From Microbacterium sp. Root61 (GTDB lineage Bacteria > Actinomycetota > Actinomycetes > Actinomycetales > Microbacteriaceae), in assembly GCF_001427525.1 (NCBI RefSeq), contig NZ_LMGU01000001.1, positions 496,001 through 560,000 on the forward strand: a stretch of 64,000 nt of DNA. Direction: 5' to 3'. Shown here piece after piece: positions 41,919 to 57,160 of this stretch; within the stretch, counting starts at the first letter, position 1, and the number at the start of each line of letters is the position of its first letter. A program made the position numbers and the translations under genes. Under the pieces are notes generated by a model, which saw only the letters and a program-made list of their open reading frames with translations, was not told the origin of the DNA and searched no databases.

Positions 41919-43580
41919 TCAGGTGCCGAACACCCGCATCTGCAGCATCAGCTCGAATCTCGTCTCGGGATCGTCGAGATCGATGCCGCCGACCTGGGAG
42001 ATGCGCTTCAGGCGGTAGCGGAGGGTGTTGGGGTGCACGTACATCTCGCCCGATGCCTTGGCGACGTCGCCGAAGGCGTCCAGCCAGGCGCGGAGCGTGG
42101 CGACCAGCTTGCCGTCGCCCTCGGCATCGTGCGCGGTGATCCGTGCGAGCGGACCGGAGAGTGAGCGGTTCTCGGCGACGATCAGGTCGCCGAGCTGATC
42201 GATGAGGGCAGCGGCCTGCACGTCCTCGATGAACGCCACGCGGGAATTCACACCCCGCGGGTCGCGCGCCCGCGCCACGCGCAGCGCGCGATCGGCGTCG
42301 GCTCGCGACGCGGCGAGCTGCGTCGGGTCGCTCACCGCGCTGCCGATGCCGACGATCACGTCGCTGCGGGTGCCGATGCGCGAGATGAACTCGCGCATGG
42401 AGGTCACGATCGTGCCGCGGGCGTCGGGTCCGGCGGGGGAGTCGGCCGGCGAGACGGGCAGCACGGCGTAGACCGTGTTGCCGAGCAGCGCGGTGACGGC
42501 ATGGGGATGCATCGCCCCGACGTGCAGCGCGAACGCGCTGGCGAGGCGGTGCATCTCGGAATGAGTGGCGGCGGAGGCCTCCGCCCCGCCGAGCATGGCG
42601 TCGCCGCTGCGGATCATGGTCGCCACGACGCTGGAGGCACCGCTGACGCGGCCGAATCGTGCGGCATGTTCGCGCGCCGGGATGCCGCCGGCCAGAAGTT
42701 TCTCGACAGTCTCGGTGCGTGCGCGATCCTGACCACGCACCAGGAACCGCGATCGGAGCATCAGCAGGGCGGCCGGCTTGGCGACATCCGTCAGCGCCTG
42801 CTCCCGCTCTGCCGTCAGCGGTTCCGAGATGCTCGCCCAGATCGTGCCGAGCAGCTCGCTGCCGGCACGGACGGCCATCACCGCACGGGGGGTCAGCTCG
42901 TCGCCGAGCCCGATGTCGGACGCGTTGACCATCACCGGGCGGTCGGATGCGTAGATACGGTCGAAGAGGCCGGCGCGCTTCAGCGACAGGGTGATGTCCT
43001 CCGGCACCTGCCGGCCGAGCACGGCGTTCTTGCGGTACTCATCGGCCTGACCCTGATCGGCCGAGAACGCCAGTACCCGCGAGTTGAGATCCTCGATCGT
43101 GACGGGTGCGTCGATGAGGGCGGCGATCGAGTTGGCGAGCGAGAAGAGATCCGTGCGGTCGTCGACCTCGACGAATGTGCCGCCCGGATTCTCGCCGATG
43201 CCCAGGGAGGACGCGAGCATCGCCGATACCCGCGACCACGATGCGCCGTGCGTCACGCCGAGCACGACGAGGCGGTGCTCTTCGGCGGCTCGGGCGAGTG
43301 CGTCATCCGCTTCCACCGGCTGCTTGAGCAGCAGCGCGACCCCGCCGGCGGCGCCGAGTGCGTGCGCGGTGGCGACGATCTGCTCGGGGTCGGCCAGACC
43401 GACCCCGAGCACGACGTCGCCGGGGCCGTACACCGGCGGATCGAGCGGATCGTGGATCACCACTGCCCGCACCTCGACGGCGGGATCGACCCTGCCGACG
43501 ACGACGTCCAACAGCGTCAGCCCTAGGTCGTCGAGCATCCGTCCCAAAGTGGAACGCGACAGCGGGGGCATGGCGAGCAT
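41919..43580 (-). CDS. PucR family transcriptional regulator
   Basis: 553-aa regulator with an N-terminal PucR-like sensor region (about residues 1-130, LDVVVGRVDPAVEVRAVVIHDP), a GAF-like middle (APVTIEDLNSRVLAFS), and a C-terminal helix-turn-helix of the PucR/CdaR type (MYVHPNTLRYRLKRISQVGGIDL). Such proteins activate small-molecule catabolic operons. The ATG at 43580 lies six bases after its own TAGCAT box, so the regulator has an independent leaderless promoter 26 bp after the racemase gene. It is the only regulator in the D-amino-acid block and the natural candidate to control it. Confidence 0.88.
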   Translation of the reverse strand: MLAMPPLSRSTLGRMLDDLGLTLLDVVVGRVDPAVEVRAVVIHDPLDPPVYGPGDVVLGVGLADPEQIVATAHALGAAGGVALLLKQPVEADDALARAAEEHRLVVLGVTHGASWSRVSAMLASSLGIGENPGGTFVEVDDRTDLFSLANSIAALIDAPVTIEDLNSRVLAFSADQGQADEYRKNAVLGRQVPEDITLSLKRAGLFDRIYASDRPVMVNASDIGLGDELTPRAVMAVRAGSELLGTIWASISEPLTAEREQALTDVAKPAALLMLRSRFLVRGQDRARTETVEKLLAGGIPAREHAARFGRVSGASSVVATMIRSGDAMLGGAEASAATHSEMHRLASAFALHVGAMHPHAVTALLGNTVYAVLPVSPADSPAGPDARGTIVTSMREFISRIGTRSDVIVGIGSAVSDPTQLAASRADADRALRVARARDPRGVNSRVAFIEDVQAAALIDQLGDLIVAENRSLSGPLARITAHDAEGDGKLVATLRAWLDAFGDVAKASGEMYVHPNTLRYRLKRISQVGGIDLDDPETRFELMLQMRVFGT

Positions 43581-43586
43581 TCTCTG

Positions 43587-43592
43587 ATGCTA
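43587..43592 (-). promoter_or_regulatory. -10 box for pucR (leaderless)
   Basis: TAGCAT on the minus strand, six bases before the ATG. Confidence 0.55.
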
Positions 43593-43606
43593 GACGTGGC
43601 GGTGGA

Positions 43607-44710
43607 TCAGCCGACGAGCGTGTCGACGTGCGCCGTCACCGCGGCCAGCAGCTCCGGGATGGGCTCCACGCCCAGGCCAGGTCCTGTAGGCACGCGGATG
43701 TAGCCGTCCTCGAGCACGAACGGCTCGGTGATGTCGCGCGCGTAGAAGCGGTCGGACGCGGAGATGTCGCCGGGCAGCGTGAAGCCCGGAAGGGCCGCGA
43801 GCGCGGCGTTGGCTGCGCGTCCCAGCCCGCTCTCCAGCATGCCGCCGCACCAGGCGCCGATGCCGTTCGCCTGAGCGATGTCGTGGATGCGGCGCGCCTC
43901 GAGATAGCCGCCGACGCGTCCCGGCTTGATGTTGACGATACTCATGGCTCGGAGCGCGATGGCGTCGGCCGCGGAGCGGGCTGAGACGATCGACTCGTCC
44001 AGGCAGATCGGGGTCGACATCATCTCGGCGAGCCGGCCGTGAAGGCGGATGTCGTCTTCGTAGAGGGGCTGCTCGATCAGGATGAGGCCGTACTCGTCGA
44101 GCTGACGCAGGTGTCCGGCATCCGCCAGCGTGTAGGCCGAGTTCGCGTCGACCTGCAGCGGCAGGCCGACGCCGAACCGCTCGCGCAGCGCGCGCACCGG
44201 CTCGATGTCCCAGCCGGGCTTGATCTTGATCTTGATCCGCACGTAGCCGGCCTCGACGAACTCCTCGACGATGTCGATCAACTCCGGGATGCTGTCCTGG
44301 ATCCCGACGGACACCCCGGAGGGCACGCGGTCCACCGTCGCCCCGAGATAGTGGGCGAGGCTTCGGCCGGTCTGGCGCAGCTGGGCATCCAGGATGGCGG
44401 TCTCCAGCGCGGCCTTCGCCATCCGGTGGCCGACGACCTTCTCCCACAGGGCCGCCACGCTCTCGGCCTGCACGTCGACACCCAGTGTGCGGGGGGCGAG
44501 GTACTCCGTCATGAGGGCGACCGCACCTGCCGAGTACTCCGAGGAGTAGTACGGATGCTCCATGGTCACGCACTCGCCCCAGCCCGAGACGCCGTCGGAG
44601 ACGACCTCGACGAGCATCGTGTCGCGCTCGGTCTGCGTGGCGAACGAGGTCGTGAACGGGGCCTTCAGCGGCAGCTTCACGTGGTGCAGTCGGATGAGAT
44701 CGATCTTCAT
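43607..44710 (-). CDS. N-acylamino-acid racemase / o-succinylbenzoate synthase family
   Basis: 367-aa enolase-superfamily enzyme of the NSAR/OSBS group. Catalytic residues line up well: the KxK base motif in RIKIKIKPGW (Lys162/Lys164), metal ligands in VDANSAY (Asp188), IEQPL (Glu about 213) and LDES (Asp about 238), and the opposite lysine in NIKPGRVGG (about 262). Lysines on both faces allow 1,1-proton transfer, that is, racemisation. No menaquinone genes are nearby; instead the gene follows a GNAT and an M20 gene, the partners of NSAR in D-to-L amino-acid conversion, so racemase activity is favoured. ATG overlaps the GNAT stop. Confidence 0.88.
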   Translation of the reverse strand: MKIDLIRLHHVKLPLKAPFTTSFATQTERDTMLVEVVSDGVSGWGECVTMEHPYYSSEYSAGAVALMTEYLAPRTLGVDVQAESVAALWEKVVGHRMAKAALETAILDAQLRQTGRSLAHYLGATVDRVPSGVSVGIQDSIPELIDIVEEFVEAGYVRIKIKIKPGWDIEPVRALRERFGVGLPLQVDANSAYTLADAGHLRQLDEYGLILIEQPLYEDDIRLHGRLAEMMSTPICLDESIVSARSAADAIALRAMSIVNIKPGRVGGYLEARRIHDIAQANGIGAWCGGMLESGLGRAANAALAALPGFTLPGDISASDRFYARDITEPFVLEDGYIRVPTGPGLGVEPIPELLAAVTAHVDTLVG

Positions 44711-45561
44711 GGGGAGCCGTCCTTCGTCGGTCGGGAGGGGGAATGAGGGGCCAGGGTGTAACCGACGCCGCGGACGAACCCGTCCACGACGAGGCCCTCC
44801 ACGTCGGCGCGGGCGAATGCGGCACGCACTTCGGCGCGCCAATCGGCTGCCACTGCGGGGTTGATCAGACGCAGCCCCTCGATGTCGACGGGTACTTCGA
44901 TGATCGCCGCGCCGCGGGTCTCGTCCGAGACGGGCACAGGTGCACCATCCGCGCCGGAGGTCAGGAGGCGTCGGTAGGGCGGCAGCGCACGCAGCGTTCG
45001 CGCGGGGACGTCGAATCGCCATCGCGCGAGCACGCGGTCGGTCGGGTCGTCTCGGTTGATCTGGTCGTCCATCTGCCCGTAGAAGTCGTCGAGGTACTCG
45101 GCGATGTCGGCGCCGAGCTTGACGATGTTGAAGTAGGCGTTGCGGGCGACCAGCGGATCGAAGGTCCAGGTCATCTCGCGTGCCCCGCGCGCGATGCACC
45201 ACTCGCGCTGGTGGAGCTTGAGTGCGTACCCGATGCCGCCCCGGTGGGCGGATGCCAGGACGCCCGTGATGTGCGAGTGCAGACTGCGCTGCTCGGGCGT
45301 CGAGAAGAAGCCGATGGAGGCCCCCAGCATCCGTCCGTCGTCGGCGTCGAAGGCACCGTGCACATACGATCCGGCGTGCTCGAGCGCACGCATGACGGCG
45401 ATCGGCATCGGGCCGGCCTGGGCGCTGTCGTCCCGCCAGATCTCGCGCAGCACGGCATCCGCCTGCTTGAGCTCGGCCATCGTGCTGAGACTCTCGATCC
45501 GCACGCGGGCGACCGACGCGGCCTTGGCCGCATCGACGAGGACGAAGGACGGCGTGGTCAT
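44707..45561 (-). CDS. GNAT-family acyltransferase (COG3375 type)
   Basis: 284-aa predicted acyl-CoA transferase. The acetyl-CoA-binding region is SHITGVLASAHRGGIGYALKLHQREW (about residues 95-120), followed by EMTWTFDPLVARNAYFNIVKLGA, which is characteristic of this GNAT subgroup. In Geobacillus a GNAT next to an N-succinylamino-acid racemase N-succinylates D-amino acids from succinyl-CoA; the same role is inferred here. The ATG shares a base with the M20 stop (TGATG), and the gene's stop overlaps the racemase ATG. Confidence 0.8.
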   Translation of the reverse strand: MTTPSFVLVDAAKAASVARVRIESLSTMAELKQADAVLREIWRDDSAQAGPMPIAVMRALEHAGSYVHGAFDADDGRMLGASIGFFSTPEQRSLHSHITGVLASAHRGGIGYALKLHQREWCIARGAREMTWTFDPLVARNAYFNIVKLGADIAEYLDDFYGQMDDQINRDDPTDRVLARWRFDVPARTLRALPPYRRLLTSGADGAPVPVSDETRGAAIIEVPVDIEGLRLINPAVAADWRAEVRAAFARADVEGLVVDGFVRGVGYTLAPHSPSRPTKDGSP

Positions 45562-46691
45562 CACACCTCGTCGCCGTCTGGTGCGCGATCTGTGAGGATG
45601 CCGCGGATCAGCTCCGCGGCCAGTGCCGCGCGCAGCGGCATCTCCTCGAGCACGACCCATTCGCCGGGCGCATGGGCGTTGCCGCCCACCGCCCCGAAAC
45701 CGTCGACGACGATGGAACCCATCGCTGCGGCGAGGTTGCCGTCCGAGGCGCCGCCGACATGGGCGGTCCCGGGAGCAGGAACTCCCAGCCGCCCCGCCGC
45801 TTCGACCAGCTCGGCATAGCCCTCGAGCGTCTGGGACTCTTCGAGGGGCGGATGCCGCGGCCCGCCGTCGATGCGAATGCCGGCGCCCGGGAGCGTGGGC
45901 CGCAGCGCCAGCATGCGCGCGTGAAGCTCCCGCTGCTGGTCCGCGGTCACGCAGCGGGCATCGACATCCACCCAGGCGTTCTGCGGCACGGTGTTGCTGC
46001 TCGAGCCCGCGGCAGCGAGCGTCGGCGTGACGGACGGTCCATCGGGGGACTGGTCGAACGCGGCGATGGCGGCCACCTGCGCCGCGAGCTCGACCGTCGC
46101 GTTGATCCCCGCCCATGGCTCGAGACCGGCGTGCGCCGCGCGACCCGTGACATGCACGCGGTACATCGAGACGCCACGCCGCGCGGTCTTGATGCGACCG
46201 CCGTCCGCGCTGCCCTCGAAGACCAGCGTGCGTCGGTGGGTGCCCGCCTCCGCGGCGATCCGCGTGCCGGAACTTGGCGCGCCGATCTCCTCGTCCGACG
46301 TGACCAGGACGGTGATGCCATCCCGGTCGCGGACGCTCGCCACGGCGTGCAGCGCCTGCACCAGCCCTGCCTTCATGTCGAAGCAGCCGGGCCCGTACGC
46401 ACGCCCGTCCTCGACCCGCCAGGGCTCCGCCGCGAGCGAGCCGACCGGCCACACCGTGTCGAGGTGGCCGAGGACCAGCACCGTGCGCGCCGTCGGCGCA
46501 CCGAAGCTCCACGAGACCTCGGGACGTCCGTCGTTGACGACGACGACCGGCGCCACGCCGAACAGCCTCGTGCCGATTTCGCTCACCGTCGCGGCTCCGC
46601 GCGCGAGTGCATCGAAGTCGCTCGACGGCGACTCCGTCTCGACGAGCGCCTTCAGGTCGCGCGTCATCTGCGCGAGGTCGAACTCCTGCAT
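45561..46691 (-). CDS. M20 family metallo-amidohydrolase (carboxypeptidase G2-like)
   Basis: 376-aa zinc hydrolase. Metal and catalytic residues: LGHLDTVWP (His76, Asp78), GCFDMKAG (bridging Asp105), TSDEEIG (Glu134 base, Glu135 ligand), and GRAAHAG in the dimerisation domain. It lacks a signal peptide. M20 enzymes of this type remove N-acyl groups or C-terminal residues; beside a GNAT and an N-acylamino-acid racemase, a role as N-acyl-L-amino-acid hydrolase is inferred. ATG lies 8 bp after the serine hydrolase gene; the stop overlaps the GNAT ATG. Confidence 0.85.
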   Translation of the reverse strand: MQEFDLAQMTRDLKALVETESPSSDFDALARGAATVSEIGTRLFGVAPVVVVNDGRPEVSWSFGAPTARTVLVLGHLDTVWPVGSLAAEPWRVEDGRAYGPGCFDMKAGLVQALHAVASVRDRDGITVLVTSDEEIGAPSSGTRIAAEAGTHRRTLVFEGSADGGRIKTARRGVSMYRVHVTGRAAHAGLEPWAGINATVELAAQVAAIAAFDQSPDGPSVTPTLAAAGSSSNTVPQNAWVDVDARCVTADQQRELHARMLALRPTLPGAGIRIDGGPRHPPLEESQTLEGYAELVEAAGRLGVPAPGTAHVGGASDGNLAAAMGSIVVDGFGAVGGNAHAPGEWVVLEEMPLRAALAAELIRGILTDRAPDGDEV

Positions 46692-46699
46692 GGCGTGAC

Positions 46700-48025
46700 T
46701 CACGCCGCCGCAGCGACGTACAGCCGGGTGCCGACCAGGATCGCCGACTTGCCGTTGCGCAGGGTGAACGGGAGCAGCAGCGTGGCGCCGGGGGAGCCCG
46801 GCGGGATGACCGTGAGGGTGCCGTCGGCGTCGGTGAGGAGGGGGAAGGTCGCGCGGTGCTCGCCGTCGCCGGTCTCCACCTCGCCCTCGATGAGCTCGAC
46901 TTCGGGACCATCGGCACCGGTGCGCAGCACGATCGAGGACCCGTAGCGGAGGTACTCCCCGAACGGTGCGTCGACGGCGGGGGTGACCCCGGGCGCACGG
47001 GGCCCCGCGGGCTGCAGTCCGAACAGCTCGGGCGCGATGGCGTTGTACACCTCGGAGGACAGTGCATCGGCGTTGCCGCCGTTGGTGAGGAGGGCGATCA
47101 CCGAGCCGCTGCCGGGGTGCACCACCACGAAGGCGTACTGGCCGATGGTGCCGCCGGTGTGGATGTAGACGGTGTCCTCGCCCCACTGGAATCGACCCCA
47201 TCCGATGCCCCAGCCCGTGAGTCCGGGGACGAGTTCCTCCGAGGCGATCACCTCGGTGCGCATGGCGACGAGGCCCTCCTCGGCCAGGACGTCGGAGGGG
47301 GCGAGGTGGAGGCGTCCGAAGGCAGCGAGGTCGCGCACGCTCGTGAAGACGCTGCCGGCGGGACCCACGGCGCGGGGGAAGAACCAGGCGTCGGCGGGCC
47401 GGTAGGGCTCGCCGAGCGCGTGCACGTGCCCGACCGCCGCGCTGTGCAGCAGCGCCTGCTCTGGCAGTGTGCCGGAGCGCTCCAGACCGAGCGGCGAGAT
47501 GATGCGCTCCTGCACGAGCTGATCCCATGTCTTGCCCGAGACGAGCTCGAGCGCGCGGCCCGCGATGATGAACCCGGTGTTGCAGTAGCTCCACAGTTCG
47601 CCCGGCTCGTGCATCAGCGGCTCATCGCGCACCTGCTCGACGTAGCGCTCCAGGACGTCGTCGCCGCGGCCGGTGTCCAGGAGCAGGTCGCACTCCAGGC
47701 CGCTCGTGTGCGAGAGCAGGTGCCGCATCGTGATCGCGGCGCCCGGCGCTCCGCCGACGGCGAGGGAGGGATCGATCTCGACGATCGGCTGGTCGATGTC
47801 GAGGAGTCCTTCGGCGGCCAGCTGCATCGCGATCGTCGAGGTCCACACCTTCGTGATCGACCCGATCTGGAACAGGGTGTCCTCCTGCACGGGCACACCG
47901 GTGCGGGCGTTGATGACGCCGGCCACGGCGACCTCGACGCCGTTCGGCGTGAGTACGGCCAAGGCAGCCCCGGGTACGCCGTTTCGGGCGATCCCGCTGT
48001 CGAGGAACTTCTGAAGATCGATCAC
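46700..48025 (-). CDS. Cytoplasmic S12 serine hydrolase (D-aminopeptidase / beta-lactamase family)
   Basis: 441-aa penicillin-binding-fold enzyme. The SxxK motif is GSITK (Ser56, Lys59), the YxN motif is WSYCNTG (Tyr147, Asn149), and the third motif is HTGG in YIHTGGTIGQ. A C-terminal beta domain of about 100 residues follows, as in D-aminopeptidase-type members. The protein starts directly at MIDLQKFLDSGIARNG with no signal peptide, so it works inside the cell and is unlikely to be a resistance beta-lactamase or a wall PBP. Inside a D-peptide transport operon it probably cleaves D-residue peptides. GTG overlaps the upstream ATPase stop. Confidence 0.82.
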   Translation of the reverse strand: MIDLQKFLDSGIARNGVPGAALAVLTPNGVEVAVAGVINARTGVPVQEDTLFQIGSITKVWTSTIAMQLAAEGLLDIDQPIVEIDPSLAVGGAPGAAITMRHLLSHTSGLECDLLLDTGRGDDVLERYVEQVRDEPLMHEPGELWSYCNTGFIIAGRALELVSGKTWDQLVQERIISPLGLERSGTLPEQALLHSAAVGHVHALGEPYRPADAWFFPRAVGPAGSVFTSVRDLAAFGRLHLAPSDVLAEEGLVAMRTEVIASEELVPGLTGWGIGWGRFQWGEDTVYIHTGGTIGQYAFVVVHPGSGSVIALLTNGGNADALSSEVYNAIAPELFGLQPAGPRAPGVTPAVDAPFGEYLRYGSSIVLRTGADGPEVELIEGEVETGDGEHRATFPLLTDADGTLTVIPPGSPGATLLLPFTLRNGKSAILVGTRLYVAAAA

Positions 48026-48840
48026 GATGACATTCCTTTCTGGGCGCCGCGCGCGATGCGCAGGCGCGGAACAGCGGCGAGCAGTTCTTGCGTGTACGGG
48101 TGGGATGCTGCGGTGAAGAGTTGTTCGGTGGAGGCGGTCTCCACGAGCCGGCCGTCCTGCATGACGGCGACCCGGTCGCACACCTGGCGCACGATGGCCA
48201 GGTTGTGGCTGATGAAGACCATCGACAGGTTCAGTCGGTCGCGGAGGTCCAGGAGCAGGTTCAGCACGCTGGCCTGTACCGAGGCGTCGAGGGCGGAGAC
48301 CACTTCGTCGGCGATCAGCAGCTCGGGTTCGAGGGCGAGTGCGCGCGCGATGTTGACGCGTTGACGCTGGCCACCGGAGAGGGCGCCGGGGTGGACGCCG
48401 ATGACGTCCGTGCCGAGCCCGACCCAGCTGAGCAGCTCCTCCGCGCGGCCGGGGGCCGTGCGCGTGGTCGCGAGCGAGTGCACCACGAGCAGCTCTTCGA
48501 GGATCTGCCCGACCTTGAGCGCGGGGTTGAGCGCGGCGTACGGGTCTTGGAAGACCATCTGCACGCGACGGCGCTGGGCCGGCTTCGGGCGGGCGGGGAG
48601 GCTCTCCCCGTCGATGCGGATGCTGCCCTCGCTCTTGTACACGCCCACGATGCAGCGCGCGAGCGTGGACTTGCCGCTGCCGGACTCACCGACCAGGCCG
48701 AGGATCTCCCCGCGCTCGACGACGAGCGACACGTCGTCCAGGACCGTGCGGGTCGGGCGCGGATGCCACGGCCACCGCGCGACGCCCTTGACCGGGAATC
48801 GCATGCTCAGGTGCTCGACCTCGAGTATGGGCAGGGTCAT
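48022..48840 (-). CDS. dppF: Dipeptide/oligopeptide ABC transporter ATP-binding protein (DppF/OppF type)
   Basis: 272-aa ATPase of the importer. Walker A GESGSGKST, Q-loop MVFQDPYAALNP, signature LSGGQRQR and Walker B LLIADEVVSALD are all present, and the conserved tail HPYTQELLAAVP identifies the Dpp/Opp/nickel subfamily. ATG overlaps the dppD stop, and the stop overlaps the serine hydrolase GTG, so transport and hydrolysis genes are translated as one coupled series. Confidence 0.93.
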   Translation of the reverse strand: MTLPILEVEHLSMRFPVKGVARWPWHPRPTRTVLDDVSLVVERGEILGLVGESGSGKSTLARCIVGVYKSEGSIRIDGESLPARPKPAQRRRVQMVFQDPYAALNPALKVGQILEELLVVHSLATTRTAPGRAEELLSWVGLGTDVIGVHPGALSGGQRQRVNIARALALEPELLIADEVVSALDASVQASVLNLLLDLRDRLNLSMVFISHNLAIVRQVCDRVAVMQDGRLVETASTEQLFTAASHPYTQELLAAVPRLRIARGAQKGMSS

Positions 48841-49895
48841 GATCGCCGTCCTCCCATCGCGGGTTCGGCGATCGCATCCGGGATCCCGAGGTCGTAGAAG
48901 CACGCGCTGCCGCGTTCGAGCGCGTCGTCCGCGCCGCGCCCGGGTGCGGCGGACAGGAGCGCGTCGACGCCGACCTGCCGGAGCGCGTAGTCCTCGTCTG
49001 GGCACACCTCGCCGGCGACGTTGCAGCGCAGGTGGAAGCGGCATCCGCTCGGACGCAGGAACCTGTCGGGCAGCTCACCCGGGATCGACACCGGCCGGCG
49101 CCGCTCCGCGTCGATGTCGGGAAGGGACCCGAGCAGCGCAGCGGTGTAGGCGTGCCGCGGGTCGGCGAAGACGTCGTCGATCGGTCCGCGTTCGACCAGC
49201 TGCCCCGCGTACATGACCTGGACGGACGAGCACAGCTGCGCGACGACGGCGAGGTCGTGGCTGACCAGGATCACGGCCGAGCCCATCGTGCGGGTCCGCT
49301 CGCCGATGAGATCCAGCACCTTGGCCTGCACTGTGACATCCAGCGCGGTCGTCGGCTCGTCGCACAGGATGAGCTCGGGCTCGCAGGCCATCGCCATGGC
49401 GATCACGACGCGCTGCCGCATCCCGCCGGAGAGCTCGTGCGGATACTGACGCAGGACGCGCTGCGGGTCGGGGATGCGGACGGACTCGAGCAGCTCGACG
49501 GCGTGACGGGCCGCTTCGCGACGGCTCCAGCCGAGAATGCGCTGCGGGCCTTCGACGAGCTGGGGGCCGATGCGACGGATCGGGTTGAGGGCCGTCATCG
49601 GGTCCTGGAACACCATGCCGATATGGCGACCGCGCAGGGCCTTCCACAGGCGCTCGGGTGCACCGATGTAGTCGACGCCGCGCCAGCGCACATGGCCGGT
49701 CACGCTCGCCTCGCGGGGGAGGAGCCCCATGATCGCGCGGAGGATGATGCTCTTGCCCGAGCCGGATTCGCCGACCAGGCCCATCATCTCGCCGGGCAGC
49801 ACATCGAAGCTGACGTTCTCGGCCGCGACCAGGTCGCCCTGCGGGGTATGCAGGGTGACGGTGAGGTTCTCGACCTGCAGAAGCGGCTCACTCAT
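48837..49895 (-). CDS. dppD: Dipeptide/oligopeptide ABC transporter ATP-binding protein (DppD/OppD type)
   Basis: 352-aa ATPase. Walker A GESGSGKSI, Q-loop MVFQDPMTALNP, signature LSGGMRQR and Walker B LILCDEPTTALD are present. The C-terminal extension CRFHLRCNVAGEVCPDED has the four-Cys pattern typical of OppD/DppD, where it binds an iron-sulfur cluster in some members. ATG overlaps the dppC stop. Confidence 0.93.
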   Translation of the reverse strand: MSEPLLQVENLTVTLHTPQGDLVAAENVSFDVLPGEMMGLVGESGSGKSIILRAIMGLLPREASVTGHVRWRGVDYIGAPERLWKALRGRHIGMVFQDPMTALNPIRRIGPQLVEGPQRILGWSRREAARHAVELLESVRIPDPQRVLRQYPHELSGGMRQRVVIAMAMACEPELILCDEPTTALDVTVQAKVLDLIGERTRTMGSAVILVSHDLAVVAQLCSSVQVMYAGQLVERGPIDDVFADPRHAYTAALLGSLPDIDAERRRPVSIPGELPDRFLRPSGCRFHLRCNVAGEVCPDEDYALRQVGVDALLSAAPGRGADDALERGSACFYDLGIPDAIAEPAMGGRRS

Positions 49896-50749
49896 CGTCG
49901 GCCTCCCGTCCGGTGTGTGAGGTTGTCCGAGATGAGCGCGAGTCCGAGTCCGAGGACGGCGACCACGATGCCCGGGATGACGGTCAGCCAAGGCGCCGAC
50001 TGCAGGTACGGTTGGCCGCCCGCGATCATCGCGCCCCACTCCGGGGTGGGCGGCTGGATGCCGATGCCGAGGTAGCCGAGGGCGGTGACCGCGCCGATCG
50101 CCAGGACGATGTCGGAGGTGAGGTAGACGACGGCCTGCAGCCAGACGTTGGGAAGCACGTGCCGCACGGCGACACGCATCGGGGAGAACCCCGCGAGGCG
50201 GGCGGCCAGGACGAAGTCCTGACCCTCGACGACGAACACCTCGGAGCGCACCAGGCGGGCGTACGCGACCCATCCGGTCACCGCGAGCGCGAAGATGATG
50301 CCGCCCGTGCCGGCCCCGAAGATCAGCAGCAGCATGATCAGGATGACGATGCCGGGGATGACCTGGACGAGATCCATCACGCGCGTGAGTACGACATCCG
50401 CCCAGCCCCGGGCATACCCGGCGGCGAGGCCGATTGAGCTGCCGATCACGAAGGCGAGGGATGCCGCGGTCAGGCCGATGAACAGATCGAGCTGGGCGGC
50501 GAACAGTACGCGGGAGAACGCGTCGCGACCGAGGTTGTCCGTGCCGAACAGGTGCGCGGCGCTGGGCGGGGAGAGGGCGGCGGGGATGTCCTGGGCGAGC
50601 GGATCGTACGGTGCCAGCCACGGGGCGCCGATCGCGGCGAGGACGTAGACGGCCGCGATGCCCACGCCGATCCAGAGCCCGGGGCCGCGTCGGTGGCCCC
50701 TGCGGCGGGCGGTGGGGGTGAGCACGGCGGGGCGTGTCAGCGCGGTCAT
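49892..50749 (-). CDS. dppC: Dipeptide/oligopeptide ABC transporter permease (DppC type)
   Basis: 285-aa inner-membrane permease. The N-terminal cytoplasmic segment is Arg-rich, the first helix is WIGVGIAAVYVLAAIGAPWL, and HLFGTDNLGRDAFSRVL is the OppC/DppC hallmark. The EAA loop that contacts the ATPases is ARLAGFSPMRVAVRHVLPNV. ATG overlaps the dppB stop (ATGA). Confidence 0.93.
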   Translation of the reverse strand: MTALTRPAVLTPTARRRGHRRGPGLWIGVGIAAVYVLAAIGAPWLAPYDPLAQDIPAALSPPSAAHLFGTDNLGRDAFSRVLFAAQLDLFIGLTAASLAFVIGSSIGLAAGYARGWADVVLTRVMDLVQVIPGIVILIMLLLIFGAGTGGIIFALAVTGWVAYARLVRSEVFVVEGQDFVLAARLAGFSPMRVAVRHVLPNVWLQAVVYLTSDIVLAIGAVTALGYLGIGIQPPTPEWGAMIAGGQPYLQSAPWLTVIPGIVVAVLGLGLALISDNLTHRTGGRR

Positions 50750-51687
50750 CGCAGGGCCACCCGAGGATCGATGAGGACGTACGCCAGGTCGGCGGCGACG
50801 TTGGCCACGAGCACGAACGCGGCGGTGATGAGCGCGATGCCCATGACCAGTGGCAGGTCGTGGGCTCGGAACCCGGCGATGATCAGCGACCCGAGGCCCG
50901 GGAGCGCGAACACCTGTTCGACCACGAGCGCGCCGCCGATGAGGCTTGCGAACACGAGGGTGAGCACGGTGATGGTCGGGATGGCCGCGTTCGGAAGCAC
51001 GTGCGAGATCATCAGGCGGAACCCGCTCATTCCCTTGGCCCGCGCGGTGAGGACGTGGTCGGATTCCAGGACGCCGATGAGGCCGAGGCGCAGGCTGCGG
51101 ATGAGGATGGCGGACACGGCGATGGTGATCGTCAGCGCGGGCAGGAACAAAGTGACCAGGTTGCCGGGGAACTCGGACACGTACCCGCCGACGGGGAACC
51201 ACCGCAGGGTGAGGGCGAAGATGAACAGCAGCATCGCGCCGATCCAGAACGACGGCATCCCGATCCCGATCAGGGGGATGGCGCGGATCATCTGGTCCAC
51301 CGCTCCGCCCCGGTTCGCTGCCGCGATCCAGGCCAGGGTCACCGTCGTGATGATGCTGAGCACCAGCACGTAGACGGTGAGCTGGATCGTGACCGGCAAT
51401 GCGCCGGCGATGACGTCCGACACGGGCTTGCGATAGAGCAGCGAGGTGCCGAGGTCTCCGCTGAACAGCCCGCCGATGTAGTCGGCGAGTTGAACCACGA
51501 CGGGCCGGTCGAGCCCGAGCGTGTGCTCGAACGCCGCGATCTGCTCGGGAGTCGCGGTGACGCCCAGCATCGCCCGTGCGGCGCTGCCGGGCATCAGCCG
51601 GATGAGGAAGAAGAGGAGGATGCCCACTCCGATCAGCGTGAGGAGTGCATACCCCAGCCGACGGAGAAGATAGGTCAGGCGTTCCAC
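50746..51687 (-). CDS. dppB: Dipeptide/oligopeptide ABC transporter permease (DppB type)
   Basis: 313-aa permease starting MERLTYLLRRLGYALLTLIGVGILLFFLIRLMPG, which is the DppB/OppB signature. The EAA loop is ARAKGMSGFRLMISHVLPNA, and six transmembrane helices are expected. GTG at 51687, 36 bp after the binding-protein gene; the stop overlaps dppC. Confidence 0.93.
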   Translation of the reverse strand: MERLTYLLRRLGYALLTLIGVGILLFFLIRLMPGSAARAMLGVTATPEQIAAFEHTLGLDRPVVVQLADYIGGLFSGDLGTSLLYRKPVSDVIAGALPVTIQLTVYVLVLSIITTVTLAWIAAANRGGAVDQMIRAIPLIGIGMPSFWIGAMLLFIFALTLRWFPVGGYVSEFPGNLVTLFLPALTITIAVSAILIRSLRLGLIGVLESDHVLTARAKGMSGFRLMISHVLPNAAIPTITVLTLVFASLIGGALVVEQVFALPGLGSLIIAGFRAHDLPLVMGIALITAAFVLVANVAADLAYVLIDPRVALR

Positions 51688-51723: not shown

Positions 51724-53256
51724 TCACTTCGCGAGCGTGAGCCGCGTGAAGTCCAGAGCGCCGGTCGTGTTGAGGGCCTGAACATCGCTGACTGCGTCGG
51801 ACACGCCCCACAGACGGGCAGGATCCATGATCGAGACCTGCACGGCGGTGTCGGCGATGAGGTCGAGGGCGTCGGCGAAGATCGCGTTGCGGCCGTCCTG
51901 GCCACTGAAGTCCGCATCCGCCTGCGCGTTGTACGCCTCGATCTGGGCCATGATGTCCTGCTCACCGGCGTAGAAGCCGTTCGTGGCGCCGTAGTACTGC
52001 AGCACCTCACCCGCATCCGCTTCGCTGATGATGTTCACGACGTACGCGTCCCAGTCGTTGGCCTCGACCTTCGCCGCGATGGCGTCGTTGTCGAGTCCTG
52101 CGAGGGTGACGGTGATCCCGATCTCTGCGAGGTTCTGCTGCACGACCTGCAGCGCGGTCTCGACTGTCGGGTCGCCGCTCGTGTACATCAGCTCGAACGA
52201 GAACCCGCCCTCCAGGCCCGCCGCCGCCATCTCCTTCTTCGCGGCTGCGGGGTCGTACAGTGCGCCGAAAGCGGGAGCGAACCCGCCCACCGCGGTCGGG
52301 ACCACGAAGGATGCCCCGGGGACGCCGTGGCCGCCCAGTGCCGCCTCGACGACCGACTCGCGGTCGATACCGAGCGAGACGGCGCGCCGTGCCTCCGGCG
52401 AGGAGAACGGTTCACCCGTCGTGTTCATCGTGAAGAAGTAGTTCTGGCCCGCGGTGAACTCCTCGACGCTGAGTCCGTCGGTCTGCGTGATCTGATCGAT
52501 CTGCGCCGTCGTGACGGCGTCGATGATGTCCGCGGTTCCGTTCTGCAGCTGGAGCAGGCGGGTGTTCGCGTCCGGCACCGTCAGGAACTCGATGCGGTCG
52601 ATGCTCGCCGGCTCACCGAAGTACTCGTCGTTGCGGACGAGGGTGATGCCCACCCCCTGCTCCCAGTCCGCGACCTTGTACGGGCCGACCGCGACCGGCT
52701 CCTGCCAGAACTCGTCTTCGGTCTTGCCGCCGAAGTCCTCGGGGATGATCGCGACGGCATAGCTGGCCAGACTGAAGATCGCGGCGGATGACGGAGCCTC
52801 GAACGTGAGCTCGATCGTCTGGTCGTCGGGCGTCTCGATGTTCACGATGCGCTGGTAGAGCGCACCCTGGAGTTCGCCCTCTTTGGCGTTCTCGATCGTG
52901 AAGGCGACGTCCGCCGAGGTGACCGGCGTCCCGTCGGAGAAGGTGACGTCATCACGGAGGGTGACCGTCAGTACCGTGTTGTCGGCGTTGTACTCGAAGC
53001 CCTCGGCGATGCGCGGCTGGATGGTGCCCTCGGAGTCGAAGGCGAACAGCGAGTTGGCCACGAGCATCAGCGTCTCCCAGCCTTCTTTGCTCGAGGCCAC
53101 CGCGTCGGCGTTGAGGGTGGTCACATCACCGGCACGGGCGACGGTGACGATGCTCTCCGCGTCACCGGTCTCGGGGGTGCTCGCCGAGCAACCCGTGAAA
53201 ACGAGGGCGGTACTGAGGGCGATGACGACTGCGGTGGCTCTTCCTGTGCGCTTCAT
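51724..53256 (-). CDS. dppA-type SBP: Peptide ABC transporter substrate-binding lipoprotein (SBP family 5)
   Basis: 510-aa extracellular binding protein anchored by a lipid: the signal ends VFTGC (Cys23). The family-5 fold shows GLSVEEFTAGQNYFFTMNTTGEPF and NPxx-like helices such as EARRAVSLGIDRESVV. Neighbouring D-amino-acid enzymes suggest D-residue peptides or their fragments as ligand; this is inference. ATG at 53256 has GGGAG seven bases upstream. A hairpin and an inverted repeat upstream separate it from the M55 gene, so it may have a second promoter. The symbol is descriptive, because dppA also names the aminopeptidase. Confidence 0.9.
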   Translation of the reverse strand: MKRTGRATAVVIALSTALVFTGCSASTPETGDAESIVTVARAGDVTTLNADAVASSKEGWETLMLVANSLFAFDSEGTIQPRIAEGFEYNADNTVLTVTLRDDVTFSDGTPVTSADVAFTIENAKEGELQGALYQRIVNIETPDDQTIELTFEAPSSAAIFSLASYAVAIIPEDFGGKTEDEFWQEPVAVGPYKVADWEQGVGITLVRNDEYFGEPASIDRIEFLTVPDANTRLLQLQNGTADIIDAVTTAQIDQITQTDGLSVEEFTAGQNYFFTMNTTGEPFSSPEARRAVSLGIDRESVVEAALGGHGVPGASFVVPTAVGGFAPAFGALYDPAAAKKEMAAAGLEGGFSFELMYTSGDPTVETALQVVQQNLAEIGITVTLAGLDNDAIAAKVEANDWDAYVVNIISEADAGEVLQYYGATNGFYAGEQDIMAQIEAYNAQADADFSGQDGRNAIFADALDLIADTAVQVSIMDPARLWGVSDAVSDVQALNTTGALDFTRLTLAK

Positions 53257-53335
53257 GGGGTGCTCCCGGTCTCAGTGGTGCTGTGTGGGTGTGAGTGACG
53301 CTCGGTGTTCGGGTGGTGCCGTCGTTCGGGTCGAA

Positions 53336-53354: not shown

Positions 53355-53361
53355 GCAGGAT

Positions 53362-53387
53362 GTCCGGCTGCGCGGGCGCAGCCGGAC
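53362..53387 (-). terminator. Hairpin after the M55 peptidase gene
   Basis: 11-bp arms GTCCGGCTGCG and CGCAGCCGGAC with a 4-nt loop, three bases after the stop of the M55 gene. It may partially terminate or stabilise the upstream transcript and so set a different expression level for the transporter. Confidence 0.55.
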
Positions 53388-53389
53388 CT

Positions 53390-54235
53390 TCACACGCGCG
53401 TGAGCACGGATGAAAGGGTGCGCTGGGCCGAGGAGGCGAGTTCGTAGCAGACCACGATCACGCCGATGACGTCGGCCGGGTCGGTGAGGTCGACGCCGAT
53501 GGCGCGACCGGACACCCGCTCCACGAGGGGCATCATCGCGGCCAGATCTGCGGCGAGCGGCGTGGGCATGTCGATCTCGAGGCGGAGGTTGGCCGGCAGT
53601 TCGACCGGGGTGAATTCCGCCGCCCGGGTGACGGCGCGGAAAGCGCCATCGCGGATCGCGTCGCGGGCCACCGAAGGCGCGACGGCGTCGGCGGCGGTCC
53701 AACCGTGCGCCACCTTGACCGAGACGACCTCGACGCCGGGCATCTCCTGCTCGGCGAGACCGCAGATGACGTCGTCCCCGGTGACCAGGCCGACGGGCAC
53801 GCCCATGGATGCGGCCCACAAGGCGTTGACGGTCATCTCCGAAGCCGGGCGACCGTTGATCCGGACCTGGGTGAAGAGGCCGGAGAAGGTGTGGGCGAGG
53901 ACGCCCTCGTGGCCGGCGGGTGCGTGATAGCCCACGAACAGGGCCACATCCACCGATTCGTCCAGGCCTTCGGCCATGCACTGGGCCTTGGGCGAGCCGA
54001 ACACCAATCGGACCCGCGGGTCCAGCTCCTCGTGCAGCAGATTGTCCATCGTGCCGTGGCTGTCGTTCACCGTGACACGGGTGGCGCCTGCGTCGTACGC
54101 GCCCTGCACCGCCGCGTTGGTCTCGAGGGTCATGAGCGTCTGGGCGCGTGGATAGCCTGAGTTGCCGCGAATGGTCTGGTTGAGAGTGGCGATTCCGCCA
54201 ATTCCCTCCATGTCCACCGAGATGTAAACGTGCAC
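53390..54235 (-). CDS. dppA: D-aminopeptidase DppA (M55 family)
   Basis: 281-aa zinc aminopeptidase specific for peptides with N-terminal D-residues in Bacillus DppA. The key residues fall at the same positions as in that enzyme: Asp8 and Glu10 (SVDMEG), His60 (NDSHG), His104 (GYHAP), His115 (AHTF) and Glu133 (ASEM). It has no signal peptide, so it acts on imported peptides. GTG at 54235 is preceded by GGAAGGAAG. It is the first gene of the minus-strand D-peptide operon and is divergent from the D-serine-type enzyme. Confidence 0.95.
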   Translation of the reverse strand: MHVYISVDMEGIGGIATLNQTIRGNSGYPRAQTLMTLETNAAVQGAYDAGATRVTVNDSHGTMDNLLHEELDPRVRLVFGSPKAQCMAEGLDESVDVALFVGYHAPAGHEGVLAHTFSGLFTQVRINGRPASEMTVNALWAASMGVPVGLVTGDDVICGLAEQEMPGVEVVSVKVAHGWTAADAVAPSVARDAIRDGAFRAVTRAAEFTPVELPANLRLEIDMPTPLAADLAAMMPLVERVSGRAIGVDLTDPADVIGVIVVCYELASSAQRTLSSVLTRV

Positions 54236-54291
54236 GTTGGGCTTCCTTCCGAGCGTTTCCCACAGACTGCCCTAGCCGAAGAGCGGTCTCT

Positions 54292-54307
54292 TTGTCCGAT
54301 CGGTCAA
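54292..54307. promoter_or_regulatory. Palindrome in the divergent dppA / D-amino-acid gene promoter region
   Basis: TTGTCCGATCGGTCAA is symmetric except for one base pair. It sits between the two divergent starts (57 and 95 bases away) and overlaps a TTGACC -35-like element on the minus strand. It is a candidate operator for the PucR or another regulator. Confidence 0.45.
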
Positions 54308-54401
54308 CACTCGGATGCCTGGTTCGTCTGCTCTGACTATACGACCGGAGATTCGGCTGAATACGCTGGTCGCGGTACCTGTCACGGAGGGAGCGTCGAG
54401 G

Positions 54402-55655
54402 ATGAACGGTCACGCAGACACGACCGATGACGTCGTCGGCTGGAGGGACAAATCCTTCCCCTCCGTGGCCGGTGTCACCGTCGATACCATCGCCGATCAG
54501 CAGTGGAACCTGCTGAACGGGGACTTCGCCTTCCCGGTGCTCGCCCTGCGTCGTTCGGCCCTGGAGCACAACCTGGCCGTGATGGCGGCATTCTGCCGCG
54601 ACGAGGGCGTCGAGCTGGCTCCGCACGGCAAGACGCACATGAGTCCTCAGCTGTGGGATCGCCAGCGCGCGAGCGGAGCCACTGCGGTGACAGTCGCGCA
54701 TGTCTCGCAGGCCCGCGTGTTCGCGGAGACCGGGGCCACCGCCATCCTGATCGCGAATGAAGTCATCGACCTGCACGATCTGGCTTGGATCCAGCGGACG
54801 CGGGCCGCCGGTGTCGTCATCACGATCGTGATCGACTCGTTCACCGGCATCGCCGTGGCGGAGGCGGCCGTCGCCGCCGACCCCGAGGCCGGACCGATCG
54901 ATGTGCTCATCGAGCTCGGCTATCCGGGCGGCCGCGCCGGGGTGCGCTCGGCCAGTCACGCGCTCGCTCTGGCGCGCAGCGCGCATGCCAGCCCCGGGGT
55001 GACCCTCCGCGGCGTCGAAGGGTTCGAGGGCGTCATGCCCGGCGAGGACGAGGAAATCCGTCGCGAGGCCGTGCGTCGCTACCTCGACGGTGCCGTGTCC
55101 ACGCTGGCGGCGTTCGTTCGCGACGGACTCGTCACCGAGTCGCCGATCGCGTCGTTCGGCGGGTCGATGTATCCCGACCTCGTGGTGGACGCCCTGCGGA
55201 TGAGCAGCGAGGTCCGCGGGCTGCCGCTGCGCATCCTGCTGCGCAGCGGGTGCTATCTGACCCACGACCACGGTCTGTACGCGGGCACCACGGCGGACCT
55301 CAACGGCGCCACGCTGGAGCCGGCCCTCGAACTGTGGGCGCGCGTCCTCTCGCGCCCCGAACCCAAACTCGCGATCCTGGGCGCCGGGAAGCGCGATGCA
55401 CCGCACGATTCCGGGTTCCCCGTCGCGCTGCGCCGGCGCGTGGACGGCGTCGAATCGCCGTTGACGGGCGTGCGGGTGACCGGCATGAACGACCAGCACT
55501 TGTATGCCGCACTCGACAGGGCAGAGGCACTGGACGTCGGCGACCTCGTCTGTCTCGGGATCTCGCATCCGTGTACGGCCTTCGACAAATGGCGCCTCAT
55601 CCCCGAGGTCGACGATCACTACCTCGTCGTCGGCGCCATCCGCACCTATTTCTAG
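54402..55655 (+). CDS. D-serine dehydratase / D-threonine aldolase-like PLP enzyme
   Basis: 417-aa fold-type III PLP enzyme. The Schiff-base lysine is Lys77 in LAPHGKTHMSPQ. The C-terminal zinc-binding HxC motif of eukaryotic-type D-serine dehydratases and low-specificity D-threonine aldolases is present as SHPCTAFDKW. ELGYPGGRAGVRS and GVEGFEGVMPG match the family's PLP-phosphate and substrate regions. It would deaminate D-serine or cleave D-threonine; the choice cannot be made from sequence. ATG at 54402 has GGGAG eight bases upstream, and the in-frame extension to 54315 is rejected. It is followed after 11 bp by the deacylase gene. Confidence 0.85.
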   Translation: MNGHADTTDDVVGWRDKSFPSVAGVTVDTIADQQWNLLNGDFAFPVLALRRSALEHNLAVMAAFCRDEGVELAPHGKTHMSPQLWDRQRASGATAVTVAHVSQARVFAETGATAILIANEVIDLHDLAWIQRTRAAGVVITIVIDSFTGIAVAEAAVAADPEAGPIDVLIELGYPGGRAGVRSASHALALARSAHASPGVTLRGVEGFEGVMPGEDEEIRREAVRRYLDGAVSTLAAFVRDGLVTESPIASFGGSMYPDLVVDALRMSSEVRGLPLRILLRSGCYLTHDHGLYAGTTADLNGATLEPALELWARVLSRPEPKLAILGAGKRDAPHDSGFPVALRRRVDGVESPLTGVRVTGMNDQHLYAALDRAEALDVGDLVCLGISHPCTAFDKWRLIPEVDDHYLVVGAIRTYF

Positions 55656-55666
55656 GGAAGATCACC

Positions 55667-57160
55667 ATGCCTCACGCCCGCGTCAACGTGCTCGGCGGGC
55701 GGGTCATCGACCCCGCCTCAGGACGCAACGAAGTCATCGCCCTGCGGTTCGAGGACGGGACGATCACCCACATCGGCCAGGTCCCCGACGACGCGGACCT
55801 GGTCGTGGACGCCACCGGCCTGGTCGTGGCGCCCGGCTTCATCGACCTGCACTCGCACGCGCAGACGCGTCTGGGGCTGCGGCTGCAGGCGCTGGACGGA
55901 GTGACGACCGCGCTCGATCTCGAGGCCGGCGCGCTGCCGGTGCGCCCGCTGCTCGCGAAGATGGCGGCGCACGGGATGCCACTGAACTTCGGCTTCTCGG
56001 CCTCGTGGTCGGCGGCGCGCATGCACGTGCTCGACGGCGCCCCACTGCGCGATGAGGCCCACCCCGCGGGCCCGGCGTCGGGTCTCAAGATGTTCAGCGA
56101 CCACCACACTGGCGAGCGCTGGGGGCAGGCGGCGACAGCCGAGCAGCATGCCCGGATCCTCGCGTTGCTGGAGGATGCGGTGGCTCACGGCGCGATCGGG
56201 ATCGGGATGCTGCTCGGCTATGCGCCGCAGACGCCGCCGGAGGAGGTACGCGCGGTGGCCGAACTCGCGGCGCGACTGCAGGTCCCCTTGTTCGTGCACT
56301 CCCGCTCCATGAGCCCCGAGACGCCGCCGACCATCCTCGATGCGGTGGACGAGCTGATCGGACTGGCCGAGGACACCGGCGTGCACGTGCATCTGTGCCA
56401 CCTGAACAGCACCTCGCACGCGCGCATCGCGCAGGTCATCGAGCGCATCCGGGTGGCTGCGGCCGCGGGGACCCGTGTCACGACCGAGGTCTATCCCTTC
56501 GGCTACGGCTGCACCGACATCGGGGCGGCGTTCCTCGCGCCCGAGGTGCTCGCCGATCAGGGCCTGCGCCCGGACTCGATCCATCACCTCGGACACGGCC
56601 GGAAGGTCCGCGACTTCGCCGACCTCGCCGCGCTGCGGGCCGAGGATCCGTCTGCGCTCTGCACCATCGACTTCCTCGATGAGGATCGACCCGAAGACCT
56701 CGCCGCGCTGATGCGCGCCGTCGCGGCGCCCGAGACGGCCATCGCCTCCGACTCGGACACGCTCGTCGGAGTCAGGGGAGTGCCCGACCCCGGCGGCGAC
56801 GAGTGGCCCGCTCCCGACGGCCTCAGCTCGCATCCGCGGGGTGCCGGATGCTTCGCCAAGGCCCAGCGGCTGCTCACGGCGGAGGACATCCCGCTCACGG
56901 AATTCGTCCGCAAGGCCAGTCTCCTTCCGGCACAGATCCTCGAGGGCAGCGTTCCGGCATTCCGTCGCAAGGGTCGGCTCGAGGTGGGCTCCGACGCGGA
57001 CATCGTCGTGTTCGACCCGGCACGGGTACGTGAGCGGGGGACCGTCCTTCAGCCCGCCGCCAGTGAGGGTGTCCAGCATCTCTTCGTCGGGGGAACAGCA
57101 GTCGTGCGCGACGGAGAGCTTCTCGTGGATGCTCTGCCGGGAGCGGCTGTACCGGGGTAG
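55667..57160 (+). CDS. N-acyl-D-amino-acid deacylase-like amidohydrolase
   Basis: 497-aa metal-dependent amidohydrolase of the D-aminoacylase/dihydroorotase group. The HxH metal site is GFIDLHSHAQ (His62, His64). Further candidate ligands are SGLKMFSDHH, VHLCHLNSTSH and the Asp in ASDSDT. The C-terminal return of the composite beta-domain is GRLEVGSDADIVVFDPARV. Release of D-amino acids from N-acyl-D-amino acids would complement the neighbouring racemase and dehydratase. ATG at 55667, in operon with the upstream PLP gene. Exact acyl and amino-acid specificity unknown. Confidence 0.8.
   Translation: MPHARVNVLGGRVIDPASGRNEVIALRFEDGTITHIGQVPDDADLVVDATGLVVAPGFIDLHSHAQTRLGLRLQALDGVTTALDLEAGALPVRPLLAKMAAHGMPLNFGFSASWSAARMHVLDGAPLRDEAHPAGPASGLKMFSDHHTGERWGQAATAEQHARILALLEDAVAHGAIGIGMLLGYAPQTPPEEVRAVAELAARLQVPLFVHSRSMSPETPPTILDAVDELIGLAEDTGVHVHLCHLNSTSHARIAQVIERIRVAAAAGTRVTTEVYPFGYGCTDIGAAFLAPEVLADQGLRPDSIHHLGHGRKVRDFADLAALRAEDPSALCTIDFLDEDRPEDLAALMRAVAAPETAIASDSDTLVGVRGVPDPGGDEWPAPDGLSSHPRGAGCFAKAQRLLTAEDIPLTEFVRKASLLPAQILEGSVPAFRRKGRLEVGSDADIVVFDPARVRERGTVLQPAASEGVQHLFVGGTAVVRDGELLVDALPGAAVPG

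What the first reader, a model, noticed from the sequence alone, without database searches (positions are those of the whole stretch)
41919..57160. Fifteen-kb block for import and use of D-amino-acid peptides
M55 D-aminopeptidase, a complete Dpp/Opp importer, a cytoplasmic S12 hydrolase, M20 amidohydrolase, GNAT, N-acylamino-acid racemase, PucR regulator, a D-serine/D-threonine-type enzyme and an N-acyl-D-amino-acid deacylase lie together. Nearly every enzyme points to D-stereochemistry. The combination suggests scavenging of peptidoglycan-derived or other D-peptides and conversion to L-amino acids or keto acids. The parts are known singly; the assembled system appears undescribed to me.
Basis: partly seen in the sequence, partly recalled or inferred. 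Interest (0 to 1): 0.8.

Follow-up and report, generated by a model that had tools for sequence, protein, structure and literature searches.

The report
Operon for importing and using D-peptides
A bacterium carries an eleven-gene operon that probably imports peptides containing mirror-image (D) amino acids, cuts them inside the cell and flips the D-amino acids to the usable L form, and similar gene sets have come together separately in distant bacteria.

Summary
Every named enzyme is present; eleven minus-strand genes (54235 down to 41919) lie close together: M55–SBP–DppBCDF–S12–M20–GNAT–NSAR–PucR. A divergent pair (D-serine-dehydratase-like, amidohydrolase) follows at 54315–57160.
Best reading: import of D-amino-acid peptides, cytoplasmic release of D-residues by M55 and S12, then N-acylation (GNAT), racemisation (NSAR) and deacylation (M20) to L-amino acids. 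This is inferred from homology and neighbourhood; no activity is shown.
GNAT–NSAR is a widespread two-gene module (NSAR in 39 of 40 phylum GNAT loci). M55 usually sits elsewhere, but M55 linked to GNAT and/or NSAR recurs in at least four M55 clades; 5 linked genomes against 0.37 expected. Two enterobacterial plasmids carry another known acylate–racemise pair, DgcN–DgcA, beside Dpp–M55. The window operon looks composite: importer sister to M55-type operons, catabolic half as in NSAR-type operons.
Pieces are in print: B. subtilis dpp/ykf, GNAT–NSAR–M20, P. abyssi Pab87. The divergent pair has no shown tie to the operon.
Verdict: real, new variant of a known kind; substrate unproven.

The parts
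53390..54235 (-). M55 D-aminopeptidase (DppA-like), first gene of the operon
   Evidence: Pfam PF04951 302.5 bits; D8, E10, H60, H104, E133 at the same positions as in B. subtilis DppA (their role as zinc ligands is recalled)
51724..53256 (-). Family-5 solute-binding lipoprotein (DppE/OppA-like)
   Evidence: PF00496 298 bits; hydrophobic start with FTGC, lipobox-like
50746..51687 (-). DppB permease
   Evidence: BPD_transp_1 and its N-terminal domain; tree
49892..50749 (-). DppC permease
   Evidence: BPD_transp_1 and OppC_N; tree
48837..49895 (-). DppD ATPase
   Evidence: ABC_tran and oligo_HPY; tree
48022..48840 (-). DppF ATPase
   Evidence: ABC_tran and oligo_HPY; tree
46700..48031 (-). S12 serine hydrolase with a C-terminal beta-rich part, no signal peptide seen
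   Evidence: PF00144 204 bits; S58xxK61, Y149xN151, H291xG; model pLDDT 88 matching SurE, Pab87, alkaline D-peptidase, but best an esterase
45561..46691 (-). M20 metallohydrolase, proposed N-acyl-L-amino-acid deacylase
   Evidence: PF01546 and M20_dimer; carboxypeptidase G2-like; next to GNAT in NSAR-type operons
44707..45561 (-). GNAT-type acyltransferase, proposed D-amino-acid N-acyltransferase
   Evidence: sub-threshold Pfam GNAT; relatives named GNAT; NSAR in 39 of 40 phylum loci
43607..44710 (-). N-succinyl/N-acylamino-acid racemase (NSAR/OSBS, enolase superfamily)
   Evidence: TIGR01928 321 bits, cut-off 201; 485 bits to an N-acylamino acid racemase structure, 1sja; K160, K162, D188, E213, D238, K262, R265 kept
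41919..43580 (-). PucR-type regulator, last gene
   Evidence: HTH_30 above cut-off, PucR domain below it; same place in L131, L132
54236..54401 (.). Shared divergent upstream region
   Evidence: gene coordinates; no sigma-70-like promoter found
54402..55655 (+). PLP D-serine-dehydratase-like enzyme (upstream start 54315 possible)
   Evidence: PF14031 and PF01168; 232 bits to 3gwq D-serine deaminase; PHGKTH and HPC motifs
55667..57160 (+). Amidohydrolase of the PRK09061 subfamily, possible N-acyl-D-amino-acid deacylase
   Evidence: 505.6 bits, cut-off 340

Best explanation
The 11-gene minus-strand operon is a D-peptide assimilation system. The lipoprotein SBP and DppBCDF import short peptides that carry D-residues. 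In the cytoplasm M55 removes N-terminal D-residues, and S12 cleaves other bonds next to D-residues (amino- or carboxypeptidase). Free D-amino acids are N-acylated by GNAT (succinyl-CoA the likely donor), racemised as N-acyl-amino acids by NSAR, and only the N-acyl-L form is deacylated by M20, which makes the D-to-L conversion irreversible. PucR regulates. The divergent pair may add D-serine deamination and N-acyl-D-amino-acid hydrolysis, but belongs only by adjacency. Shown: gene content, order, conserved residues, neighbourhood recurrence, importer phylogeny. Inferred: substrates, acyl group, direction, regulation, cytoplasmic location.
For: Metal-site and catalytic residues kept in M55 and NSAR. 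A separate menC above its cut-off lies elsewhere in the genome (470 bits, C1:1630833), so the window copy is not needed for menaquinone. NSAR with GNAT in 39 of 40 phylum loci. DppBCDF–S9S12–M20–GNAT–NSAR in 4 other family genomes (L131-L134), with PucR next to it in two. M55 near GNAT and NSAR in L179, L277, L288, L051; near GNAT alone in L188 and Embleya L259; near NSAR alone in L276. M55 trees: these fall in at least four separate clades. 5 linked genomes against 0.37 expected. Plasmid parallels: dgcN–dgcA–Dpp–P1–M55; D-amino-acid transaminase with Dpp, M55 and a MurR/RpiR regulator. Deinococcus QL22 has NSAR–GNAT–permeases–SBP–S12–D-aminoacylase–MurR/RpiR. The S12 model resembles D-specific S12 enzymes among others.
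Confidence: 0.7

Rival explanations
1. A general peptide or nonribosomal-peptide scavenging operon in which D-stereochemistry is incidental: Dpp imports L-peptides, S12 and M20 are an esterase/carboxypeptidase pair, and only M55 and NSAR touch D-residues.
Against: M55 and NSAR here, and in relatives M19, D-aminoacylase and DgcN-DgcA, join such loci.
Confidence: 0.2
2. Peptidoglycan-stem recycling like B. subtilis dpp-ykf: uptake of L-Ala-gamma-D-Glu-type muropeptides.
For: MurR/RpiR regulators beside M55-Dpp or NSAR-GNAT loci elsewhere; ykfA-D next to the dpp transporter in B. subtilis.
Against: No LD-carboxypeptidase or NlpC/P60 endopeptidase in the block; the racemase is NSAR-type and far below the dipeptide-epimerase cut-offs; the regulator is PucR.
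Confidence: 0.15
3. Detoxification: the operon removes D-amino-acid peptides (antibiotics, cell-wall-active D-residues) rather than feeding on them.
For: S12 shares its fold with beta-lactamases; M55 beside a D-Ala-D-Ala ligase gene on a Nonomuraea plasmid.
Against: A dedicated importer would worsen the exposure; the full D-to-L route recovers amino acids (inference).
Confidence: 0.07

Closest known systems
B. subtilis dpp transporter with DppA and neighbouring ykfABCD
   Same: M55 DppA and a Dpp importer; an enolase-superfamily enzyme (YkfB) beside it; cytoplasmic processing (passages of PMC2954226, PMC3305447)
   Different: YkfB is an L-Ala-D/L-Glu epimerase; YkfA and YkfC have no counterpart here; here S12, M20, GNAT, NSAR and PucR
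Geobacillus kaustophilus NSAR D-to-L pathway (Sakai 2006, Biochemistry 45:4455)
   Same: acylate, racemise, deacylate logic with GNAT, NSAR and a desuccinylase (content recalled; only the title was seen, in a reference list)
   Different: here the module sits in a peptide-import operon with D-peptidases; homology of the two GNATs not tested
DgcN-DgcA irreversible D-Glu racemisation
   Same: N-acetylate, then racemise; also found beside Dpp-P1-M55 on two plasmids (pathway in passages of PMC12363236, PMC10845958)
   Different: window racemase scores 99 bits against the DgcA cut-off of 400
Pyrococcus abyssi Pab87 (CubicO S12) locus
   Same: S12 D-peptidase near a D-aminoacylase and a dipeptide ABC transporter, proposed for environmental D-peptides (passages of PMC2651629)
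   Different: CubicO-specific motifs absent in the window S12; the passages seen name no M55, GNAT or NSAR at that locus, though four of seven CubicO organisms have a DppA
DppBCDF-S9S12-M20-GNAT-NSAR operons of the same family (L131-L134)
   Same: catabolic half in the same order
   Different: no M55 seen; S12 fused to an S9 peptidase; another importer clade

Membership tests
M55 / DppA D-aminopeptidase | five metal-site residues of DppA (D8, E10, H60, H104, E133; role recalled) | tested here: met
   alignment to 1hi9 and positions
M55 / DppA D-aminopeptidase | NCBIfam DppA equivalog cut-off | tested here: not met
   193 bits against 430; the Pfam M55 cut-off is met, so M55 member but not a called DppA equivalog
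NSAR/OSBS | KxK, D-E-D metal ligands, second catalytic Lys, Arg three residues on (roles recalled) | tested here: met
   K160, K162, D188, E213, D238, K262, R265, kept in all 10 proteins aligned
NSAR/OSBS | N-succinylamino-acid racemase activity | not testable with these tools
   only indirect: separate menC in the genome
GNAT-NSAR-M20 D-to-L pathway | the three genes adjacent | tested here: met
   43607-46691, contiguous
GNAT-NSAR-M20 D-to-L pathway | GNAT homologous to the G. kaustophilus enzyme | not tested
   that sequence was not fetched
DgcN-DgcA | DgcA equivalog score | tested here: not met
   99 bits against 400
CubicO S12 (Pab87) | SxxK, YxN, HxG motifs | tested here: met
CubicO S12 (Pab87) | YAEAF/L, FFYLN and C-terminal ERY motifs (listed) | tested here: not met
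   none present; window reads WSYCNTGF and ends RLYVAAAA
CubicO S12 (Pab87) | C-terminal lipocalin domain and octamer | tested here: inconclusive
   strands at 358-440; alignment to 2qmi ends at 343
B. subtilis ykf muropeptide pathway | LD-carboxypeptidase and NlpC/P60 endopeptidase in the cluster | tested here: not met
   neither among the 13 genes of 41919-57160
D-aminoacylase | metal-bridging cysteine (recalled) | tested here: not met
   GNCG of 3gip aligns with LEAG
PRK09061 amidohydrolase subfamily | score above cut-off | tested here: met
   505.6 against 340 bits

The most novel reading that the evidence does not exclude
D-peptide import operons are built on one plan in several phyla: a Dpp importer plus a D-peptidase (M55, S12, M19) plus an interchangeable 'D-amino-acid disposal' cassette, which may be GNAT-NSAR(-M20), DgcN-DgcA or a D-amino-acid transaminase. 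The physiological role of the catalytically promiscuous NSAR/OSBS family, at least where it is linked to M55 or S12, would then be salvage of D-amino acids released from imported D-peptides, and the window is a composite of two such operon types.
Probability: 0.4. Interest if true: 0.68.

Novelty: new variant of a known kind. Interest (0 to 1): 0.52.

Why it matters
D-amino acids from cell walls and nonribosomal peptides are a large, slowly used pool of nitrogen. If this reading is right, it gives the widespread GNAT-NSAR pair a physiological source of substrate and joins three separately published ideas (M55-Dpp, acylate-racemise-deacylate, S12 D-peptidases) into one testable operon. It also suggests that the D-amino-acid disposal step is a swappable cassette, which would help to annotate unassigned peptidases and GNAT proteins.

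Tried and rejected
Filing the S12 as CubicO: its three specific motifs are absent. Filing the racemase as menaquinone OSBS: a separate menC exists. Treating the D-serine-dehydratase-like/amidohydrolase pair as part of the conserved system: relatives of the first gene occur in 127 of 299 family genomes, an amidohydrolase relative is adjacent in 4 of 19 other loci examined, and neither follows M55 or GNAT. Deriving the window M55 from the family's M55-Dpp operons: it groups instead with a same-genus copy and, in the larger tree, with Embleya too. Against a strict GNAT-NSAR link: 29 Brevibacterium loci (L002-L028, L030, L031) show GNAT without NSAR in the 10.8-20.8 kb held, and 19 of 22 Acidobacteriota loci show GNAT with none of the partner queries. 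Promoter and terminator scan gave nothing above chance. GNAT structure prediction was never accepted by the busy machine, nor a Foldseek search with the S12 model. VIA-align rows for S12 mostly end near residue 342; nothing is concluded about the C-terminal part.

Controls and limits. One search took GNAT matches of 150 bits or more and left M55 fragments out; one search took the match columns, fragments included. The place list was cut, so weak GNAT matches could be missed. Related genomes make both figures optimistic. The GNAT loci of G334 and G480, which are M55-linked, were not among the 40 (they are L188, L179), so M55 in 0 of those 40 is partly my choice. Contig ends hide neighbours. The window genome and L051's are left out of the count of 5. 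Both M55 trees are quick trees with one support value; fewest changes of the linked state were 8 for 9 linked rows among 93. L179 was missing from the M55 residue check.
Full report
What is there. The window's minus strand from 54235 to 41919 holds eleven genes in one direction: M55, SBP, DppB, DppC, DppD, DppF, S12, M20, GNAT, NSAR, PucR. From DppB to NSAR neighbouring genes overlap by 1-10 bases, except for 8 bases between S12 and M20; the larger gaps are 26 (NSAR-PucR), 36 (DppB-SBP) and 133 bases (SBP-M55). Starts are my choice. Two plus-strand genes diverge from M55: a D-serine-dehydratase-like PLP enzyme and an amidohydrolase.

Host. Two family genomes have contigs of the same length as named Cryobacterium contigs (899593 and 170709 bases), so the family is probably that of Cryobacterium (Microbacteriaceae, recalled). 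The genus was not told. G000 has 4,022,601 bases.

Neighbourhoods in the family. Of 299 family genomes, 52 have a GNAT relative and 20 have M55. Among 30 short GNAT loci, the window included, 26 show NSAR; among 21 long ones, two of them the host's own paralogues, 18 do. Among 19 other M55 loci, 15 carry DppB, C, D and F beside M55, and none carries GNAT or NSAR. Four genomes (L131-L134) carry DppBCDF, an S9-S12 fusion protein, M20, GNAT and NSAR in the window's order, two of them with PucR next to it (Pfam on the fusions of L131, L132, L133, L137 and L188). The window's own genome has a second such operon with the fusion and GNAT but no NSAR or M20 found (L137), and a third GNAT without these enzymes (L136; a Dpp/SBP set lies 6 kb away).

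A composite operon. In a tree of concatenated DppBCDF the window is sister to the M55-type importers (support 98/98); holding it with the NSAR-type importers is rejected (AU p = 0.016). The window row is long and only one row stands outside both types, so this is moderate evidence. The M55 gene itself groups with a same-genus copy that has no such neighbours (L125) and with Embleya, not with the M55-type operons. The catabolic genes are those of NSAR-type operons. The simplest account is a recombined operon with parts of at least two sources (inference).

Recurrence elsewhere. In Actinomycetota outside the family, 40 GNAT loci gave NSAR in 39, M20 in 4, S12 in 3 and M55 in none (two M55-linked genomes were held separately, see limits). 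Forty M55 loci gave GNAT in two: L179 (SBP-DppBCDF-GNAT-NSAR-M55-M20) and L188 (GNAT, S9-S12, S12, M19, M55, S12; no NSAR found). In the class of L051's genome, 20 M55 loci gave GNAT and NSAR in two (L277, L288) and NSAR alone in one (L276), and G797 has GNAT 1.7 kb from an M55 fragment. L051, found through GNAT, has two amidohydrolases, M55, GNAT, M19, S12 and NSAR in a row. Embleya sp. NBC_00888 has PucR-GNAT-Dpp-S12 opposite an M55 that is 54% identical to the window's; a P1 peptidase follows, and no NSAR was found. A second Embleya has S12 opposite M55 without the rest (L258). On the M55 trees the linked rows fall in at least four separate clades. Leaving out the window genome and L051's, five genomes (G334, G480, G697, G786, G797) have M55 and GNAT within 10 kb against 0.37 expected.

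Parallel cassettes. Pantoea ananatis and Enterobacter hormaechei plasmids carry dgcN-dgcA-Dpp-P1-M55. Skermanella, Paracoccus and Azospirillum plasmids carry a D-amino-acid transaminase, a MurR/RpiR regulator, Dpp and M55. Of nine annotated plasmid M55 loci read, two have DgcN-DgcA, three the transaminase and four neither. Alicyclobacillus has Dpp-S9-M55. DgcN is described as the key of an irreversible racemisation pathway for acidic D-amino acids (passage of PMC12363236). On the NSAR side, Deinococcus sp. QL22 has NSAR-GNAT-permeases-SBP-S12-D-aminoacylase-MurR/RpiR, Sulfitobacter has MurR/RpiR, an amino-acid ABC transporter and NSAR-GNAT, D. radiodurans MP1 has NSAR, SBP pieces and GNAT (this NSAR is a relative of, not identical to, the solved one), and an Arthrobacter plasmid has M19, a PucR-like regulator, M20, S12, GNAT and NSAR.

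Mechanism. Import, then D-residue release by M55 and S12, N-acylation, racemisation and L-selective deacylation form a closed route from D-peptide to L-amino acid. Steps after release follow the published NSAR pathway (Sakai 2006; I saw the title in a reference list; the content is recalled). The substrate is unproven. Absence of LD-carboxypeptidase and NlpC/P60 genes argues against intact muropeptide stems and for D-Ala-type or nonribosomal D-peptides (inference).

Divergent pair. The D-serine-dehydratase-like gene is common (127 of 299 genomes) and has an amidohydrolase neighbour in 4 of 19 other loci. It is plausible company, but not a demonstrated part of the system.

Literature. Ten searches were made. 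I saw passages of PMC2651629 (and its section 5), PMC2954226, PMC3305447, PMC8762209, PMC8142540, PMC12363236 and PMC10845958. None of these passages describes M55 with GNAT-NSAR in one operon. Most subscription papers are not held, so this is weak evidence of absence.

Noticed in passing
L131:5500-8865, L132:4066-7533, L133:11495-14845, L134:11339-14674, L137:10427-13789, L188:1558-4857: A protein of about 1100 residues joins an S9 prolyl-oligopeptidase-type half to an S12 half, mostly in NSAR-type operons; the window has only the S12 half.
   Followed up: partly
G000:C1:1434001-1454000 (L137) and C1:3065307 (L136): The host has a second importer-S9S12-GNAT operon without NSAR beside a hydantoinase-like amidohydrolase, and a third GNAT.
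   Followed up: partly
L002-L028, L030, L031: Brevibacterium keeps a GNAT relative (37-42% identity) with no NSAR found in the stretch held; its role there is unknown.
   Followed up: no
L276:8393-9394: A threonine ammonia-lyase-like gene sits between NSAR and M55 in an Acidobacteriota locus that also has a MurR/RpiR-type regulator.
   Followed up: no
L269: M55 beside D-alanine--D-alanine ligase and threonine/serine dehydratase genes on a Nonomuraea plasmid.
   Followed up: no
L257, L267: dgcN-dgcA-Dpp-P1-M55 cluster on Pantoea and Enterobacter plasmids; M55 is not named with DgcN-DgcA in the passages read.
   Followed up: partly
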